Virus record (IMG/VR): IMGVR_UViG_3300047489_000148
Location: 1 to 25,146 of that record
From: a virus
Length of the DNA: 25,146 nucleotides
Direction: 5' to 3' (one strand)
A program made the position numbers and the translations under genes. The notes under the pieces were generated by a model, which saw only the letters and a program-made list of their open reading frames with translations, ran no database searches and was not told where the DNA came from. Positions 2,187 to 25,146 of the stretch are shown here, piece after piece. Numbering within the stretch: the stretch's first letter is position 1; each line of letters begins with the position of its first letter.

Positions 2187-3671
2187 CTAAGTCTTTTTGC
2201 GACGGCGCTTTACTGGTTTTTTAACCTCGGGTTCCTTGTTTGCGATGGCGCTCCCGCCACGCACCAGAGCGGCCAGCAGAGGGAAACCCGCAAGCGTCAA
2301 CCCGCCCGCCACCAGCATCAAGAAGAGGCTTAGAAAACTTCCCGAGGATGGCAGCGGGTTCGGGATCTTGCGCTTGTCTGCGTCTTTTTTGGGGTCGTAG
2401 TCAGGTCGCACCCTGCGGAGCGCATCCGCAAGCGCCGCAGCTCCGCCATCATAGTCACCTTGGGAATGCAAAACCTTGCCAACACCCTTGGCATCGGGCC
2501 CCGATTGCACCACGATCCGTGGTGAACCCGGAAGCAATCCGATATCCTTGACCGCCCAGGAGTCGGGCCGGTATGACTGGACCAGCAAGATGTCAGCAAA
2601 AGCGTGTAATGAGGGATGATCTTCGAGATCTTTGACAACTGCCTGACACTCAGCTTTAGTGCCGATCACCGTTAAACGGAGCTTCTGACGGTCGTCGATG
2701 AGATCGGTTCCCTTTCCCTCAAGCGCGCTGTAAGCTTGTTTCTTGGAAACCTCAACGCCACCGAGCCAGAACTTCTCGACCCCGGTGTCGATGCGAGAAC
2801 GATCCAAACCGAAGTTGAGTTCCTTCTGTTCGATGACTTTCTCGAGGTGGGATTCGGGTGGCGTGATCGGGGCCTCGGGTTGATCCGCTCCCCAGTTGCC
2901 ATCTGGGAGAAGCTCTCGGTAGCATTGGCGTTTCTTGATCCAGACTCCCCGCTGGTAACCACCGCTGTAGAGCGCAACCTGGTCCGCGTCGATGACCCTC
3001 CACTCATAGGGCACCGCGACCGCGGCGCTGGAGCTTGCGCCCCATTTCTGCCCGTAGGTTTTCACCGGAGGCGAGTCATTGACCGGGATCGGAGGAGGAG
3101 GAGGTGCCAGCAGCACGACCGCCCAGCCACCACCGCCGGAGATCCAGCGTTTCTTGAACTCGCTGGGAGACATCCACTCGTATTTATCCTCGCCGGGAAA
3201 ATTATTGTCCAGGATCGCTGCCCACTTTTCCGAGAGATGCGCAGCGTTTACCATGTGAGCGATCTTGCCACTGTACCTGGGCGAATATCCGTAGGTGACC
3301 GATGGCATCCTCCCGGTCGTGAGAGCGAGCTTGATGAGTGAGGGATCGTTTCCCTCGTACTGAAGATATTGCGCACCCTCGCAATACTTGGCCAGCATCT
3401 TCTCGACCTTCGATGGGTAGCCGCCGCCGAGCTCCTTGGTCATTTTCTTTTGCAGGCCGAGGATGGATTCGACATTCTGCCAGCGTCCGCTGTGCTCGAT
3501 CGAGGTGAAAACGCAAAGGCCAGCGCCATCGCGGCCTCCGGTGTTCTTCATCTGCTCCGAGCCCGGTAGATCGACCTGGATCTCCTCGCTGCCGTCGGGT
3601 GAGGTGCGACCACCCTCGACCGAGGTTGACTCGATCTGGGAAAACATAAGGAGATAGATGAGAAAGTTCAT
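2187..3671 (-). CDS. C39-like (papain-fold) cysteine peptidase with C-terminal membrane segment
   Basis: 494 residues. AAGGA lies 7 bases before the ATG at 3671. The first 10 residues are hydrophobic (MNFLIYLLMF) but too short for a clear signal peptide. Residues about 45-185 carry a peptidase-like domain: GLCVFTS with Cys53, KIAHMVNAAHL with His139, and ILDNNFPG with Asp155/Asn156. That is the Cys-His-Asp/Asn order of papain-like and C39-like enzymes. A WMSPSEF...GGGGWAVVLL end and a proline-rich linker (APPPPPIP) follow. The C-terminal part has a hydrophobic segment (SLFLMLVAGGLTLAGFPLLAAL) and a basic tail (KKPVKRRRKKT). It sits directly before the holin-like gene, so it may cleave a cell-wall peptide bond during lysis or entry; this is inference. 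No classical lysozyme, amidase or CHAP gene is visible in the window. Confidence 0.65.
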   Translation of the reverse strand: MNFLIYLLMFSQIESTSVEGGRTSPDGSEEIQVDLPGSEQMKNTGGRDGAGLCVFTSIEHSGRWQNVESILGLQKKMTKELGGGYPSKVEKMLAKYCEGAQYLQYEGNDPSLIKLALTTGRMPSVTYGYSPRYSGKIAHMVNAAHLSEKWAAILDNNFPGEDKYEWMSPSEFKKRWISGGGGWAVVLLAPPPPPIPVNDSPPVKTYGQKWGASSSAAVAVPYEWRVIDADQVALYSGGYQRGVWIKKRQCYRELLPDGNWGADQPEAPITPPESHLEKVIEQKELNFGLDRSRIDTGVEKFWLGGVEVSKKQAYSALEGKGTDLIDDRQKLRLTVIGTKAECQAVVKDLEDHPSLHAFADILLVQSYRPDSWAVKDIGLLPGSPRIVVQSGPDAKGVGKVLHSQGDYDGGAAALADALRRVRPDYDPKKDADKRKIPNPLPSSGSFLSLFLMLVAGGLTLAGFPLLAALVRGGSAIANKEPEVKKPVKRRRKKT

Positions 3672-17282: not shown

Positions 17283-17488
17283 TAGCGAGTCTCTTTGTGT
17301 TTTTTGGTGGTTGCCTTCTCAGCCTTGTTTTTACGGGTTTCGGGGAGTGGAGGAGCAAGCGCCTCAACGACGCTTGCCCACCCAAGATCAACGCATTTTT
17401 TTGCCTCCGAGTCCGGCAGATCATAGACCAGATTCGCATCATAGCCAAAATTCAAACCGGCCACGGAGGTGAGGAATTTAACTTTCAT
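17282..17488 (-). CDS. small phage protein after major capsid, function unknown
   Basis: 68 residues. The ATG overlaps the capsid TAA (TAATG). The N-terminal 45 residues (MKVKFLTSVAGLNFGYDANL, then VYDLPDSEAKKCVDLGWASV) match a small conserved pattern I often see encoded between major capsid and connector genes. The C-terminus is a Lys/Thr-rich tail (KNKAEKATTKKHKETR), which may be disordered. Its role is not known to me; position suggests a minor head or decoration-related protein. Confidence 0.75.
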   Translation of the reverse strand: MKVKFLTSVAGLNFGYDANLVYDLPDSEAKKCVDLGWASVVEALAPPLPETRKNKAEKATTKKHKETR

Positions 17489-18855
17489 TAGCTTGCTGCC
17501 ATCACCAAGTGCTTGATGGGGTCAGTGCCAGCATCGAGGATTCTTCCGTCGTGACGGGAGAATCCAACGAAACCGACTTGGTGATAATCAGCGTACCTTT
17601 CCTCGAGACGCAGGAGGGTGAAGTCCTGGACATCGCGGATGATGTACTTGCTGAAGTCACCAAAATAGATCGCCTTGGCGGAAGCTGCCATCGTTGCCAC
17701 ATCCTGGTTGATCACGATCGGCGAGCCGAGCAGTGTGCCAGGAGATGAGGCGCTGATGTCAGGCTGGAAGATCGGACGATTCTGATCGTCCACCAATTTC
17801 CTGATAGCCTTGAAAGTGCTGTCGTGCATCATGAATCTTGCATTCGCACGATAGGCAGGATCAAGACTATGCTGGAGATCCACCAGTTCCGCATAGGTCA
17901 CAGCACCGGTTGCGGCAGCGGTGACGCTGGAACCGGATGCTGAAATGCCCTGGGGCTTGCTGGAGTTGTCACCTGTGGTGAAGTGAGTGTTTAAAATTCT
18001 TGCCACTCTCTCCCCTAAAGCCCCCCCGATAAATGATTCCAAATCAATCGCTGTATCCTGCAAAAGTTCAGCAGAAACTCGGATGAGCTTTGAGCTGTAC
18101 TTGTAAGCCTTGAGCGTGATCTGACCGAAGGTCACATCCTGCTCAGCGACTTGGGTGTTTTCAGCAAGGATTGCGCCGACATTACTGTGATCGCTCACGG
18201 TTGGAATCGGTAAGTCGTTTCCTTCGCCAGTTCGGATAATGGTTGCGACTTCTCGCATCCCACCGAATGCCAACAAAGAAGCTTCCAATTGATTGAGAAA
18301 ACCCTGTGGCACGGTGTAACCGCCCGCAGTGGTAGTCAAGGATTGAGCTCGAGCTTCGGCTTGATTCTTGGGAGCTTTGGCATTCAATTTGAACGACAAG
18401 CGATTGTTTCCAAGTTCGAGGCCTGATCTCTGGGCAGCGACTCGCTGCTCGTTGGTAGCTCCGTTCACTGAGTGAAATCCGAGCCATCCTCGAAGGGCCA
18501 GTGCTCGGTCTGTAGTTGCTTGACGATCTCCAAGATCGCGTACAAACGCAGGAGCCTCAATTGGGCTTGAGCGTCGTGCTGCTGGCCTTTTGGAAGAAGC
18601 TTCCAAGGCTGCAAGCTTTTCGCTGCGAGCGGTGCCAGCGTCAGCAGAAGCGACAGCAGGAACATCGGCAGTGTTCATCGACTCGAGGTCGGCGATGCGT
18701 ACTTCGTGCTCATCAACCTGGGCAACCAAACCATCGAAGGCGGTTTGCTCTTCAGGGGTCAGTTCTCGTTTTTCATTGGTGCCCTTGGCGTGAATGGCTC
18801 GGGCTTCTTCCAGTTTCTTGGTGCGCTCTGCGCGCAGTGTTTCGATTTCGTTCAT
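17488..18855 (-). CDS. HK97-type major capsid protein with N-terminal delta/scaffold domain
   Basis: 455 residues. AGGAAG lies 7 bases upstream of the ATG. Residues 1-60 are a charged coiled coil (IETLRAERTKKLEEARAIHA), the delta domain that scaffolds assembly and is removed by the prohead protease. A low-complexity linker follows to about residue 115. The HK97-fold core begins near residue 174 (TTTAGGYTVPQGFLNQLEAS). It continues with NDLPIPTVSDHSNVGAILAE, then TLKAYKYSSKLIRVSAELLQ and IGGALGERVARILNTHFTTG, ending with YADYHQVGFVGFSRHDGRIL. All are standard for the family. It is separated from the protease by a regulatory cassette and has its own promoter. Confidence 0.95.
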   Translation of the reverse strand: MNEIETLRAERTKKLEEARAIHAKGTNEKRELTPEEQTAFDGLVAQVDEHEVRIADLESMNTADVPAVASADAGTARSEKLAALEASSKRPAARRSSPIEAPAFVRDLGDRQATTDRALALRGWLGFHSVNGATNEQRVAAQRSGLELGNNRLSFKLNAKAPKNQAEARAQSLTTTAGGYTVPQGFLNQLEASLLAFGGMREVATIIRTGEGNDLPIPTVSDHSNVGAILAENTQVAEQDVTFGQITLKAYKYSSKLIRVSAELLQDTAIDLESFIGGALGERVARILNTHFTTGDNSSKPQGISASGSSVTAAATGAVTYAELVDLQHSLDPAYRANARFMMHDSTFKAIRKLVDDQNRPIFQPDISASSPGTLLGSPIVINQDVATMAASAKAIYFGDFSKYIIRDVQDFTLLRLEERYADYHQVGFVGFSRHDGRILDAGTDPIKHLVMAAS

Positions 18856-18887
18856 CGGATTTCTTCCTAATATTTGCGGTATTAGGG

Positions 18888-18973
18888 CAGTGCATCAGTC
18901 TCAGAACGAGACATAAAAAAACGCACAGGCCCCTAGTTCGGGATCTGTGCGTAAAGACTGCACTGATTTCGAT
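18888..18973 (-). promoter_or_regulatory. structured 5' leader of the capsid transcript
   Basis: From the predicted start near 18973 to the ATG at 18855 is about 118 bases. A long-range stem can form between GCACTG (18965-18960, in minus-strand order CAGTGC) and 18893-18888, extended by AGTCT (18959-18955) with AGACT (18901-18897). It encloses the terminator-like hairpin at 18921-18952. A small hairpin GTCTC/GAGAC (18912-18908 with 18902-18898) competes for the same AGAC bases. Mutually exclusive stems around a terminator hairpin are the layout of an attenuator. No known RNA family is recognised. Confidence 0.5.
18915..18952 (-). terminator. terminator-like hairpin inside the capsid leader (possible attenuator)
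   Basis: An 8-bp stem ACGCACAG/CTGTGCGT (18952-18945 with 18928-18921), with an inner CCC/GGG helix, is followed on the minus strand by seven Ts. It lies between the promoter at 18980-19007 and the capsid start, so it must be bypassed or act as a partial terminator. Confidence 0.65.
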
Positions 18974-18979
18974 AAGACG

Positions 18980-19007
18980 ATTAAACCACGGATTTGCGAA
19001 TTGTCAA
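18980..19007 (-). promoter_or_regulatory. sigma70-like promoter for the major capsid gene
   Basis: A perfect TTGACA (19007-19002), a 16-base spacer and TTTAAT (18985-18980, 5 of 6 matches to TATAAT). It lies just downstream of a strong terminator and upstream of the capsid leader, so it can restart transcription of the head-tail genes. A 17-base spacer to TTAATC is an alternative reading. Confidence 0.65.
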
Positions 19008-19018
19008 CACTCGCAACC

Positions 19019-19048
19019 AAAAAAAAGCCCGCCGGTTAAGGCGGGCTT
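19019..19048 (-). terminator. strong intrinsic terminator after the HTH gene
   Basis: A 9-bp stem AAGCCCGCC/GGCGGGCTT with the 6-base loop TTAACC, running into eight Ts on the minus strand. It begins 4 bases after the HTH gene stop codon. Confidence 0.88.
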
Positions 19049-19052
19049 GAGA

Positions 19053-19235
19053 TTAGACTTTCTTGGGTCGCCCGGGAGGACGGCGCTCAAGGAACTGAAG
19101 GTCACCGGGGTCGATCAGGTAGTCCCGACCGATACGCTGCGCTCGGAGCTTTCCCGACGCGATCAAAGCCTGAACCCGCCTCGGAGTGACACCGAGAAGG
19201 GCTGCGACTTTCCCGACTGGGATGAGGTTAGTCAT
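19053..19235 (-). CDS. small HTH DNA-binding protein (excisionase/MerR-like) with AT-hook-like tail
   Basis: 60 residues starting MTNLIPVGKVAALLGVTPRR. Residues about 5-30 form a winged-helix HTH of the excisionase/MerR type (VGKVAALLGVTPRRVQALIA). They are followed by the wing SGKLRAQRIGRDYLIDPGDL, a standard HTH_17-like pattern. The C-terminus RRPPGRPKKV contains the GRP core of an AT-hook. It starts 3 bases after the stop of the 77-residue gene and ends at a strong terminator, so the two form a small operon. It could repress its own promoter, regulate capsid transcription, or act as excisionase far from int. The sequence cannot separate these. Confidence 0.75.
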   Translation of the reverse strand: MTNLIPVGKVAALLGVTPRRVQALIASGKLRAQRIGRDYLIDPGDLQFLERRPPGRPKKV

Positions 19236-19238
19236 TTT

Positions 19239-19472
19239 TCACCAGACTTCTGAAACTTGGTCATCTGATATGCGAAATCTTCTCACTAATAACTTTGATA
19301 AATCATCAGGAAGCTCAGCAAGAAATTCTTCAGCGTCTTCTCCCCAAGACGGGAAATCATCCATATCTCGAATTGTGTCAGCAATTTTTTTGTTATCCTC
19401 GTCGCTGGTGGTTTCGCCAGATCGCTCAGAAACCCACAACTGTAAATCCCGAAAAGTTGTAAAAATAACCAT
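19239..19472 (-). CDS. small acidic hypothetical protein
   Basis: 77 residues starting MVIFTTFRDLQLWVSERSGE. AAGGAG lies 8 bases before the ATG. The protein is acidic (DDFPSWGEDAEEFLAELPDD), probably helical, with no membrane segment or known motif. It is the first gene of the two-gene cassette between protease and capsid. It is preceded by an AT-rich promoter-like region with a palindrome and tandem repeats. An acidic partner of a basic HTH protein could be a regulator or DNA mimic, but nothing here proves this. A competing frame (to 19510) lacks a good start. Confidence 0.55.
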   Translation of the reverse strand: MVIFTTFRDLQLWVSERSGETTSDEDNKKIADTIRDMDDFPSWGEDAEEFLAELPDDLSKLLVRRFRISDDQVSEVW

Positions 19473-19499
19473 GTCTCTATCTCCTTTTTCACCCTCACC

Positions 19500-19520
19500 C
19501 GACCGATCACTCGTCGGTCG
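19500..19520 (-). promoter_or_regulatory. hairpin in the leader of the small cassette
   Basis: CGACCGA and TCGGTCG (19520-19514 and 19506-19500) pair perfectly across a 7-base loop, 10 to 30 bases downstream of the TATAAT boxes and just before the ribosome binding site of the 77-residue gene. No T run follows, so it is not a terminator; it may affect translation or mRNA stability. Confidence 0.45.
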
Positions 19521-19530
19521 TCGTGTGGTT

Positions 19531-19562
19531 ATTATATTATACTATTCGTTGTGGCGAATAGT
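19531..19562 (-). promoter_or_regulatory. palindromic operator-like site abutting twin TATAAT boxes
   Basis: ACTATTCG and CGAATAGT (19541-19548 and 19555-19562) form a perfect 8-bp inverted repeat with a 6-base centre. On the minus strand it runs directly into TATAAT (19541-19536) and a second TATAAT (19536-19531). No good -35 box is present at the right distance. A dimeric regulator bound to the palindrome would control this start; the neighbouring HTH protein is the obvious candidate. Confidence 0.55.
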
Positions 19563-19634
19563 TTATTATCAGAATTACGGATTATTTTTCAAAATAATTT
19601 AAAATGACTGTTTTTATAGGGTTTGATGAGTCAA

Positions 19635-19664
19635 CCAGTTGTCGGCGGTTGTCGCCAGTTGTCG
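19635..19664 (-). repeat. three tandem 10-bp repeats (CGACAACYGS)
   Basis: On the plus strand the units are ccagttgtcg, gcggttgtcg and ccagttgtcg, exactly 10 bases apart. All share GTTGTCG and face the same side of the helix. They lie about 95 bases upstream of the TATAAT boxes of the cassette. This spacing is typical of cooperative binding sites for a regulator. Confidence 0.6.
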
Positions 19665-19669
19665 GAAAG

Positions 19670-19693
19670 AGGGTGAGGTAATTTCCCCACCCT
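19670..19693 (-). terminator. possible weak terminator after the prohead protease
   Basis: AGGGTG and CACCCT (19693-19688 and 19675-19670) pair, with inner GG/CC, 26 bases after the protease stop. Only CTTT follows, so termination would be weak. It may instead be an mRNA end-protecting hairpin. Confidence 0.35.
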
Positions 19694-19718
19694 TAGAAAT
19701 GCCCGAGAAAACGACTTT

Positions 19719-20273
19719 TTACCTGACCCCGCGGAGTCGGAGCTCCCGCTCCCGGATCTCTGACGCCAGCCTGTCGAGGTGTTTATTATGAGACCTTACC
19801 GCAACCGTGGTATCAGGGTAAGCGGGATAGGTCACCACGCTCACGTCGTGGAGCTCAACAGCAAGCAGCGATCGCACCCGTTGCCCGTCAACGAGATCCC
19901 AAGAGTCCTCGGTGGTGGTAAACGCAAAGGACATCTGTGAGACATCGCCCCGAGCCATCACTGCCATGAGGTCGGCAGCGTACTGGGTATCTGGTGGGTC
20001 GATCGTCACCCGCAAACCGGTGGCATCGGTCTCAAGTCTCAGAGTGCCCGAAACGGTGCGCCCGAGAATAAGGCTCGGGTTGTGGTCGATCAAGGCTCTC
20101 ACGTCGGGGTTATTGTCGAGCGACCTCTGAAACGCTCCTGGTCGAATAAACTCTCGGAAGCCACCGAGGTCTTCACTCGGGAGATCGTATTTTGCTGCGT
20201 AGCCTATGATTTTTTGCGCTGCGGTATCGACTCGCAACTCGGTGCTGAATCGTCGCTCAATGTTAGTTTTCAT
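19719..20273 (-). CDS. HK97-type prohead protease (peptidase U35)
   Basis: 184 residues. The ATG lies within the portal gene end (11-base overlap). The fold markers are IIGYAAKYDLPSEDLGGFRE, then FIRPGAFQRSL, ALIDHNPSLILGRT with His64, MARGDVSQMSFAF with Ser115, and VELHDVSVVTYPAYPDT with Glu140. His and Ser are at the positions expected for the herpesvirus-like serine protease fold of this family. It cleaves the capsid delta domain during maturation. Its length is typical. The capsid gene, usually adjacent, is here displaced by about 860 bases of regulatory cassette. Confidence 0.93.
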   Translation of the reverse strand: MKTNIERRFSTELRVDTAAQKIIGYAAKYDLPSEDLGGFREFIRPGAFQRSLDNNPDVRALIDHNPSLILGRTVSGTLRLETDATGLRVTIDPPDTQYAADLMAVMARGDVSQMSFAFTTTEDSWDLVDGQRVRSLLAVELHDVSVVTYPAYPDTTVAVRSHNKHLDRLASEIRERELRLRGVR

Positions 20274-23465: not shown

Positions 23466-23938
23466 TCGATTGCCCTCATGATGTCGATGATGCCGTCCTT
23501 GCCGCCGTTGCTGCTTTCAAGTCTCGGTCTCGCTGCTGGTGTCAACCCAAACTCGCTTTCGAGTTTCAACAGTTGCTCGCTGGATTTATTGAAAACCATA
23601 TACGGTGGCGTGGGGATGAACCCCTTTACCTTGCCGCTCTCATCCTTCACGGGCATGAACGATGGAACGCCGTCCGCCATCTGCTTGGCAGCATCCATCC
23701 AACGAACCAAGATTGACGCGTACCTTGTCAACGCTCCAGCATCGATCTCGGTCAGGACACCAAGGTCAAAAAGTTTCTCGGCCATCTTGTCGAAGATCTC
23801 ACGCTCCCTGGGCCCGAGAAACTCAGGCGCTTTAATTTTCATGACTTCCGGTTTCGGTTCGTTTGGTCGTGTCTTCGCACGCCAAGACCCGCGGATCTTT
23901 AGGATGTTCGTCGGGGTTGGTTTTCTTCCCTTAGGCAT
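23462..23938 (-). CDS. terminase small subunit (P27-like)
   Basis: 158 residues starting MPKGRKPTPTNILKIRGSWR, the opening of P27-family small terminases (GRKPTPT..LK..G). The middle has APEFLGPREREIFDKMAEKL, EIDAGALTRYASILVRW and YMVFNKSSEQLLKLESEFGL, ending TPAARPRLE. All are normal for the family. It recognises the packaging site on phage DNA and recruits the large subunit. Its ATG overlaps the end of the methyltransferase gene by 8 bases (ATGCCTAA), so the two are translated together. Confidence 0.92.
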   Translation of the reverse strand: MPKGRKPTPTNILKIRGSWRAKTRPNEPKPEVMKIKAPEFLGPREREIFDKMAEKLFDLGVLTEIDAGALTRYASILVRWMDAAKQMADGVPSFMPVKDESGKVKGFIPTPPYMVFNKSSEQLLKLESEFGLTPAARPRLESSNGGKDGIIDIMRAIE

Positions 23939-25146
23939 TCTTATTCTCCAGCGATGCCTTCTTCCCGGTCAGCGTTTCCCACCGCTTGACGATTACGTCG
24001 CAGTATTGGGGGCTGATCTCCATACCGTAGCACTTGCGGCCCAGTTGCTCTGCGGCGATGAGCGTGGTGCCGGAGCCGAGGAATGGGTCGTAGACATCGC
24101 CACCGTGATTCCGCATCAAGTAGGCCATGCACTCGACGGGTTTTTGGGTCGGATGCTCCGTCTTATCCTCGTCGGAACCTGACATGATGTGGTTTGGGCT
24201 TTTAGCGTCGATGACGGTTGTCTGTTTTCGGTCGCCGACCCACCCGTGTTGTTTGCCTTTTCTGACTGCGTACCAGCATGGTTCGTGCTTAAAGTGGTAG
24301 TCGCTCCTGCCCATCACCATTACAGATTTGTTCCATATCAACTGCTGACATATATCAAACCCTGCTGCCCGTAGGCTCGCCATAACGACATCCGAAAATT
24401 TATCTGCGTGCCAAACATATGCGACATCACCAGTAAAAGCCTTCCAGACTTCCGTCCAGTCAGCACGATCGTCGTTTGCCACGACGTTTCTGTTTCCAGG
24501 CCCCATCGCCTTTTCGCCGAGCGCCTTATCTCGCCATGACTGGTCTAGCTTCACTCCATACGGTGGGTCGGTTACCATAACAAATGCCTTTTGACCCGCC
24601 ATCAACCGCTCTACATCATTTGCCTTTGTCGAGTCACCGCATAGAAGGCGATGATCTCCGAGAGTCCACAAGTCACCCGGCTTCGTGATCGGGTCAACGG
24701 TTGGCTCGGGCACTTCGTCCTCGACGATTTCTTTTTCATCAAGGTAAAGTCCTTCGCCCTCGGCGAGATCAGCCAGCATCTTTTGAAGCGCCTCGCTTCC
24801 GGTGTCTACGTTTCTAAGAAGTGCATCGAGTGCACCCGCGTCGCTCTCTGCCATCGCTGCGATCGGGTCGAAGGTTGCGAGAAGCTTATCGCTCTCGGCT
24901 TCGTCGACATCCAAAACCAAAACCGGGATCTCTTGATCGTTTGTTGTCTCTGCTCTCATATGCCCATCGATCAACATGAGCGAGCCATCATCAAGCTCCC
25001 GAACCAGCACTGCCCCTGCGAAACCGACCTCGGCAAGAATGCCCTTAAGCGCATCCTGTTGCGCGATCGGGTGCGTCCTCCAGTTTTTTGGATTGGGAAT
25101 AAGCTCGGATGATTTCACCCTTCGCAGCTCCTTGATTCGATCTCTA
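23931..25146 (-). CDS. ParB-like nuclease-domain/DNA methyltransferase fusion, 5' end outside window
   Basis: At least 404 residues are visible. The frame stays open to the right edge, and the segment RDRIKELRRVKSSELIPNPK reads as protein, so the start is probably beyond the window. A GTG at 25118 with AAGGAG 9 bases before it is an alternative. Numbering from that GTG, residues 1-80 are a ParB/Spo0J-like domain (LIPNPKNWRTHP, LIDGHMRAE). The methyltransferase has DPPY at 184-187, TQKP at 324-327 and DPFLGSG at 344-350. That motif order is of the beta class of N6-adenine/N4-cytosine enzymes. It probably modifies phage DNA against host restriction. The ParB part may help target DNA. No cognate nuclease gene is seen. 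Confidence 0.88.
   Translation of the reverse strand, partial: RDRIKELRRVKSSELIPNPKNWRTHPIAQQDALKGILAEVGFAGAVLVRELDDGSLMLIDGHMRAETTNDQEIPVLVLDVDEAESDKLLATFDPIAAMAESDAGALDALLRNVDTGSEALQKMLADLAEGEGLYLDEKEIVEDEVPEPTVDPITKPGDLWTLGDHRLLCGDSTKANDVERLMAGQKAFVMVTDPPYGVKLDQSWRDKALGEKAMGPGNRNVVANDDRADWTEVWKAFTGDVAYVWHADKFSDVVMASLRAAGFDICQQLIWNKSVMVMGRSDYHFKHEPCWYAVRKGKQHGWVGDRKQTTVIDAKSPNHIMSGSDEDKTEHPTQKPVECMAYLMRNHGGDVYDPFLGSGTTLIAAEQLGRKCYGMEISPQYCDVIVKRWETLTGKKASLENKNA

What the first reader, a model, noticed from the sequence alone, without database searches (positions are those of the whole stretch)
19019..19700. Moron-like regulatory cassette between protease and capsid
HK97-type phages usually keep protease and capsid adjacent. 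Here two small genes (an acidic 77-residue protein and an HTH/AT-hook protein) have their own upstream control region and a strong terminator, and split the head operon. The capsid then needs its own promoter. The cassette may control the switch to structural gene expression, or act in the lysogen.
Basis: partly seen in the sequence, partly recalled or inferred. Interest (0 to 1): 0.65.

Follow-up and report, generated by a model that had tools for sequence, protein, structure and literature searches.

The report
Swappable self-regulated phage accessory operon
Between the protease and capsid genes of this uncultured virus family sits a plug-in slot that is empty in some members and in others holds a small operon of ever-changing cargo genes under one conserved switch, laid out like the operons phages use to disarm bacterial immunity, though what the cargo does is untested.

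Summary
On the minus strand a 77-aa acidic gene and a 60-aa HTH_17 gene lie between the S78 protease and the HK97 capsid, with an AT-rich control region and a strong terminator. Comparison with 41 distinct protease-to-capsid regions of relatives changes the meaning. Eighteen have no cassette, ten carry other cargo, thirteen carry an HTH cassette, so the cassette is a moron-like insert. The capsid's own promoter, the terminator before it and a structured leader RNA exist with or without the cassette (exception: L003/L005 lack the terminator), so the split is ancestral, not caused by the cassette. All 13 HTH cassettes, and no other region, carry an inverted repeat (TTCGC-N5-CGAA) in the cassette promoter; twelve also have a 5'UTR hairpin with invariant loop CRAGUGA and covarying stem. 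Cargo varies; the HTH gene is conserved and nearly always last. This resembles acr-aca operons: an autoregulated, exchangeable accessory operon. That the HTH switches on structural genes is not supported: its operator occurs only at its own promoter. Cargo function (host-directed or anti-defence) is inferred, not shown. By domain the HTH is not one of Aca1-10.

The parts
19719..20273 (-). S78 prohead protease (upstream neighbour)
   Evidence: Pfam PF04586 160.8 bits
19666..19694 (-). hairpin after protease; a full terminator with U7-9 in cassette-less relatives, U-tract broken here by the insertion
19635..19664 (-). three tandem 10-bp repeats CGACAACTGG; present in only some cassettes (also L003, L095)
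19542..19561 (-). inverted repeat CTATTCGCCACAACGAATAG, predicted operator of the HTH protein, lying over the -35/spacer of the cassette promoter
   Evidence: in all 13 distinct HTH cassettes and in none of 28 other regions; at the cassette promoter of HTH-bearing records
19531..19541 (-). cassette promoter -10 (two overlapping TATAAT)
   Evidence: alignment of relatives' control regions
19500..19520 (-). 5'UTR hairpin CGACCGA-[CGAGUGA]-UCGGUCG, invariant loop, covarying stem
   Evidence: 6 of 7 pairs change on both sides, 0/500 shuffles as high; elsewhere only 2 chance matches in 1.4 Mb
19481..19489 (-). Shine-Dalgarno AAAAAGGAG of P77
19239..19472 (-). P77, acidic 77-aa cargo protein; its domain is the N-terminal module of longer cargo proteins in L005, L015, L093
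19053..19235 (-). 60-aa HTH_17/Xis-like regulator with GRP tail; no clear SD of its own, 3 nt after the P77 stop
19019..19048 (-). intrinsic terminator closing the cassette
18980..19007 (-). capsid promoter TTGACA-16-TTTAAT, ancestral
18889..18964 (-). capsid mRNA leader, helices P1-P2-P3 around invariant AGUCUUUACGC
   Evidence: fold z=-5.0; relatives z -3.4 to -7.5; covariation
18866..18886 (-). leader hairpin P4, CCUAAUA/UAUUAGG, overlapping the capsid SD
17488..18855 (-). HK97-type major capsid protein (downstream neighbour)
   Evidence: Pfam PF05065 235.1 bits

Best explanation
The cassette is an exchangeable accessory operon (a regulated moron) plugged into a transcriptionally insulated slot between the protease terminator and the capsid promoter. 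Shown by comparison: the slot can be empty, hold other cargo, or hold variable cargo plus a conserved HTH_17 gene; every HTH cassette shares one promoter with an inverted-repeat operator and nearly every one shares a 5'UTR hairpin; the capsid has its own promoter regardless. Inferred: the HTH protein binds the inverted repeat as a dimer and represses its own operon, so the cargo is made in a burst when repressor-free phage DNA enters a cell and is then shut down, as in acr-aca operons; close or overlapping translation of cargo and regulator ties the brake to cargo output. P77 is most likely a small acidic host-directed protein (anti-defence or host take-over), because cargo turns over fast while its control stays fixed; that last step alone I put at about 0.45.
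For: 41 distinct protease-to-leader regions: 18 empty, 3 with a 63-aa gene, 7 with a membrane protein, 13 with HTH; operator in 13/13 HTH and 0/28 others. Only one unrelated match to the strict operator among the loci scanned; in whole records it is at the cassette promoter of HTH-bearing phages and absent from HTH-less ones, apart from one chance match in L021's record. The TTCGC half-site and the recognition-helix residues PRR(V/I)Q are both kept even in HTH proteins only about 43-54% identical. Filled and empty sites with about 93% identical flanks (L015 vs L011), and cargo swap with 93% identical flanks and control region (window vs L003). Most cargo proteins are strongly acidic and without significant Pfam/NCBIfam/PADLOC matches. 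acr-aca layout, an inverted repeat inside the core promoter and autorepression are established for Aca families (PMC9410906); in JBD30 AcrF1 is gp35, between scaffold gp33 and protease gp37/capsid gp38 (PMC11445458).
Against: No binding or expression data. Cargo has no recognisable anti-defence homologue; the Foldseek search with the P77 model gives nothing significant. Host and its defences are unknown (GTDB scans gave no close relative). L003/L005 lack the cassette terminator. L029-L031 carry a further gene after the HTH. Not all cargo is acidic (the 139-aa protein of L095/L029 is +10 to +11). L122 lacks the CRAGUGA loop. The HTH belongs to the excisionase-like family, so activation instead of repression is possible.
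Confidence: 0.66

Rival explanations
1. The HTH protein is a switch for structural genes: it acts at the capsid promoter (18980-19007) to time capsid synthesis or to silence it in the lysogen.
For: A TTCGC half-site lies in the spacer of the capsid promoter of the window; in most relatives the HTH gene is next to that promoter.
Against: The same promoter and leader exist in cassette-less phages; many HTH-bearing relatives have ATCGC instead of TTCGC there (L094, L091, L088); no full operator at the capsid promoter.
Confidence: 0.07
2. The HTH protein is the phage excisionase (recombination directionality factor).
For: Matches TIGR01764, PHROG excisionases and the PDB chain 4j2n Gp37 (the Pukovnik phage Xis, from memory); tandem repeats one helical turn apart at 19635-19664 resemble the sites described for such factors (PMC7498355).
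Against: Cassette-less and HTH-less relatives still carry an integrase (L021/G004, L049/G003, L033/G005, L051/G008); the tandem repeats are seen in only a few cassettes, the inverted repeat in all 13; the integrase lies about 20 kb from the cassette in L005's contig.
Confidence: 0.06
3. A toxin-antitoxin or prophage-encoded defence unit, with P77 as effector and the HTH as antitoxin/repressor, useful to the lysogen.
For: Two-gene operon with HTH second; weak PADLOC match of the HTH to Mad1 of MADS (E=5e-5); relatives are probably temperate.
Against: Partner genes are unrelated to one another and none matches a toxin or effector family; one to three cargo genes per operon, not a fixed pair.
Confidence: 0.14
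4. P77 is a virion part such as a capsid decoration protein; lambda gpD-like genes sit between protease-scaffold and capsid genes.
For: Position (PMC4378225).
Against: Absent from most close relatives, replaced by unrelated proteins of 60-220 aa; own regulated promoter and terminator separate it from the head operon.
Confidence: 0.05

Closest known systems
acr-aca (anti-CRISPR / anti-CRISPR-associated) operons of phages
   Same: Small variable cargo genes followed by a small HTH gene; inverted repeat inside the core promoter; conserved regulator with changing cargo; location in the head-gene region as in JBD30 (PMC9410906, PMC11445458)
   Different: HTH is of the HTH_17/excisionase type, not one of the Pfam domains listed for Aca1-10; cargo not shown to inhibit CRISPR-Cas or any defence
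Morons (lambdoid and Mu-like phages)
   Same: Extra genes with own promoter and terminator, different GC, between genes adjacent in relatives (definition in PMC4378225)
   Different: Can be multi-gene, apparently self-regulated, cargo exchanged under a fixed promoter/operator/UTR; inserted into a slot already bounded by a terminator and a promoter
Xis/RDF-type winged HTH proteins (TIGR01764; Gp37, PDB 4j2n)
   Same: Same domain family
   Different: Inverted-repeat site in the promoter of its own operon in all HTH cassettes; not linked to the integrase and absent from integrase-bearing relatives
Aca2-type dual DNA/RNA control of an acr operon (from memory; no open paper found)
   Same: Operator in the promoter plus a structured RNA element in the 5'UTR
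   Different: Here the RNA loop is invariant and the stem covaries; what binds it is unknown; sequence relation to Aca2 not tested

Membership tests
Moron | Absent from close relatives, between genes adjacent in them | tested here: met
   18 of 41 distinct regions without cargo; L015/L011 filled/empty pair
Moron | Own promoter and terminator | tested here: met
   Sequence and conservation; no transcript data
Moron | Deviating base composition | tested here: met
   P77 and control region 41% GC versus 53-57% in neighbours; the HTH gene is 61%
Moron | Expressed in the lysogen | not testable with these tools
   needs RNA data
acr-aca operon | Small HTH gene downstream of variable small genes in one operon | tested here: met
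   13 distinct cassettes
acr-aca operon | Inverted repeat within the core promoter, specific to the HTH family | tested here: met
   13/13 versus 0/28
acr-aca operon | HTH protein represses the operon | not testable with these tools
   needs reporter assay
acr-aca operon | HTH protein belongs to a known Aca family (Aca1-10) | tested here: not met
   Best Pfam match HTH_17; Aca1-10 are listed with other HTH domains. A direct comparison with Aca sequences was not run
acr-aca operon | Cargo inhibits CRISPR-Cas | not testable with these tools
   no known homologue; P77 model has no significant fold match
Excisionase (RDF) | Accompanies the phage integrase | tested here: not met
   Integrase present in HTH-less relatives; indirect evidence only

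The most novel reading that the evidence does not exclude
An HTH_17/Xis-like protein is a new Aca-type regulator that controls a swappable anti-defence operon at two levels, binding the TTCGC inverted repeat in DNA and, in the same operon, the invariant CRAGUGA-loop hairpin in the 5'UTR; the capsid next door has its own newly seen structured leader RNA.
Probability: 0.2. Interest if true: 0.78.

Novelty: new variant of a known kind. Interest (0 to 1): 0.56.

Why it matters
It marks a fixed address in an uncultured, probably temperate phage family where fast-changing cargo genes are kept under one conserved switch. If cargo is anti-defence, the promoter/operator/hairpin signature is a search key for unknown inhibitors that have no recognisable homologues. 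It also shows that the head operon of this family is split at the capsid by a terminator, a promoter and a conserved leader RNA that no Rfam family matches, which makes the question of how such phages set capsid levels testable.

Tried and rejected
Rfam on the region and on relatives: no family at gathering score; low-scoring hits to the terminator are chance. P77: no significant Pfam, PHROG, NCBIfam, PADLOC or PDB-sequence match; AlphaFold best model pLDDT 75, the other four 50-56; Foldseek best E 2.1, with AcrIE3 at E 4.6, which is not evidence. Host identification through GTDB: nothing close. A boxA/nut-like reading of the leader motif AGUCUUUACGC was considered; only UCUUUA agrees, too little. 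Attenuation by leader helix P2 plus U7 was considered; clade B (L041, L044, L045, L112) keeps the helix but has no U-tract, so a conserved attenuator is unlikely. Excisionase role disfavoured by integrase in HTH-less relatives. The automatic consensus model R1 of the leader lost helix P1, so I counted helices by hand.

Full report
WHAT IS THERE. The window is a 25,146-base IMG/VR virus record. On the minus strand it reads terminase, portal, S78 protease, P77, HTH, capsid, head-tail genes. Both genes are under purifying selection.

RELATIVES. A capsid scan of IMG/VR gave 80 loci, about 50 of them at 73-98% identity. With loci from HTH, P77 and leader scans I obtained 41 distinct protease-to-leader regions. 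Eighteen are empty (49-138 nt), three carry a 63-aa gene, seven carry a small membrane protein without HTH, and thirteen carry an HTH cassette (745-2009 nt). Many of these sequences are close variants of each other; the counts are of distinct sequences, not of independent events.

THE SPLIT IS OLDER THAN THE CASSETTE. Empty regions already contain a GC-rich hairpin with a U-tract, then TTGACR-16 nt-TTTAAT (or TCTAAT/TCGAAT/TCAAAT/TCTGAT), then the leader RNA. In L015 versus L011 (flanks about 93% identical) the cassette is inserted at the boundary of the hairpin and the U-tract and brings its own hairpin, so that a terminator is again next to the capsid promoter. The exception is L003/L005, which have no terminator after the HTH gene.

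THE CONTROL REGION. Every HTH cassette has an inverted repeat TTCG[C/T]-N4-[A/G]CGAA over the -35/spacer, followed by a -10 (TATAAT, TATACT and similar). It occurs in 13/13 HTH cassettes and 0/28 other regions, and in whole records only at the cassette promoter of HTH-bearing phages apart from one chance match. In the window the exact pattern occurs only there (with one mismatch allowed the pattern is no more frequent than chance, so the weight rests on position and conservation). Twelve of 13 have a 5'UTR hairpin with loop CRAGUGA about 27 nt before the start codon. In seven distinct versions, six of seven pairs change on both sides, and no shuffle of 500 reaches the covariation score. Among 1.4 Mb of loci, other hairpins with this loop and at least four pairs were two chance matches; a reversed-loop control gave one. 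Because the stem sequence changes while the pairing stays, this is more likely an RNA structure than a sequence-specific DNA site (inference).

THE CARGO. P77 (42-73% identity to relatives over the domain) is the N-terminal module of longer proteins in L005, L015 and L093. Other cargo includes a Cys-rich protein, a 156-158-aa acidic protein and unrelated proteins. Most are strongly acidic and unmatched in the libraries searched. The HTH gene follows cargo closely or overlaps it and is last in the operon except in L029-L031.

HOW IT MOST LIKELY WORKS. Shown by comparison: exchangeable cargo under a fixed promoter, operator and UTR, next to an independent capsid promoter. Inferred: the HTH protein dimer binds the inverted repeat and represses its own operon; cargo is expressed in a burst on entry. 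This is the logic demonstrated for Aca proteins (PMC9410906), and an Acr gene lies in the head region of JBD30 (PMC11445458). The anti-defence function of P77 is my best guess, at about 0.45. The hairpin may be a second control point, by the HTH protein or by another factor; this is open.

THE CAPSID LEADER. Independently of the cassette, the capsid mRNA starts with a conserved structure: P1 (GUGCA/UGCAC or GCGUA/UACGC), an invariant AGUCUUUACGC, P2, sometimes P3, and P4 overlapping the Shine-Dalgarno. P1 has two compensated changes between clades; P2 has two pairs changed on both sides, but these follow a single clade split, so the covariation is modest evidence. Seventy-one IMG/VR stretches hold the motif; nearly all lie before this capsid or in fragments that end there, and three (L119, L142, L164) show none of these genes. 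No Rfam family matches. A plausible role is control of capsid mRNA stability or translation.

VERDICT. Real, and more interesting than claimed in one way (a slot with a conserved switch and two conserved RNA elements), less in another (the cassette neither created the split nor, on this evidence, controls the capsid). New variant of a known kind.

Noticed in passing
window 18866-18964 (-): Capsid mRNA leader: conserved structured RNA with invariant AGUCUUUACGC and a hairpin (P4) covering the capsid Shine-Dalgarno; present with and without the cassette, not matched by Rfam.
   Followed up: partly
L089:400-460 (same contig as L109): Sequence GGACGAAACGGCGCAAGCCGUACGGAAG..CUUCCGCUGAUGAGUCC has the core letters of a permuted hammerhead ribozyme, just before a P77 homologue; Rfam did not report it at E<1.
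   Followed up: partly
L117, minus strand, around 2998-3150: Divergent capsid leader with the motif repeated twice (UAGUCUUUACGC and UAGUCUUAACGC).
   Followed up: no
L031 after the HTH gene (also L029, L030): Extra 148-aa gene whose C-terminus weakly resembles the RNA polymerase alpha C-terminal domain (Pfam E=0.02, below cut-off).
   Followed up: no
window 19635-19664; L003 and L095 upstream of first cargo gene: Optional tandem repeats CGACAACTGG / GGTCAACTGGC of 10-11 bp, one helical turn apart, variable in copy number.
   Followed up: partly
L026, L028, L036 and others: HTH-less variant of the slot: small membrane protein under a similar layout with a different inverted repeat (GTGCGTG-CTCC-CACGAAC) and a UTR hairpin with another loop.
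   Followed up: no
window 23931-25118 (-): ParB-like/DNA methyltransferase protein (phrog_498, E 5e-106) upstream of the terminase region.
   Followed up: no
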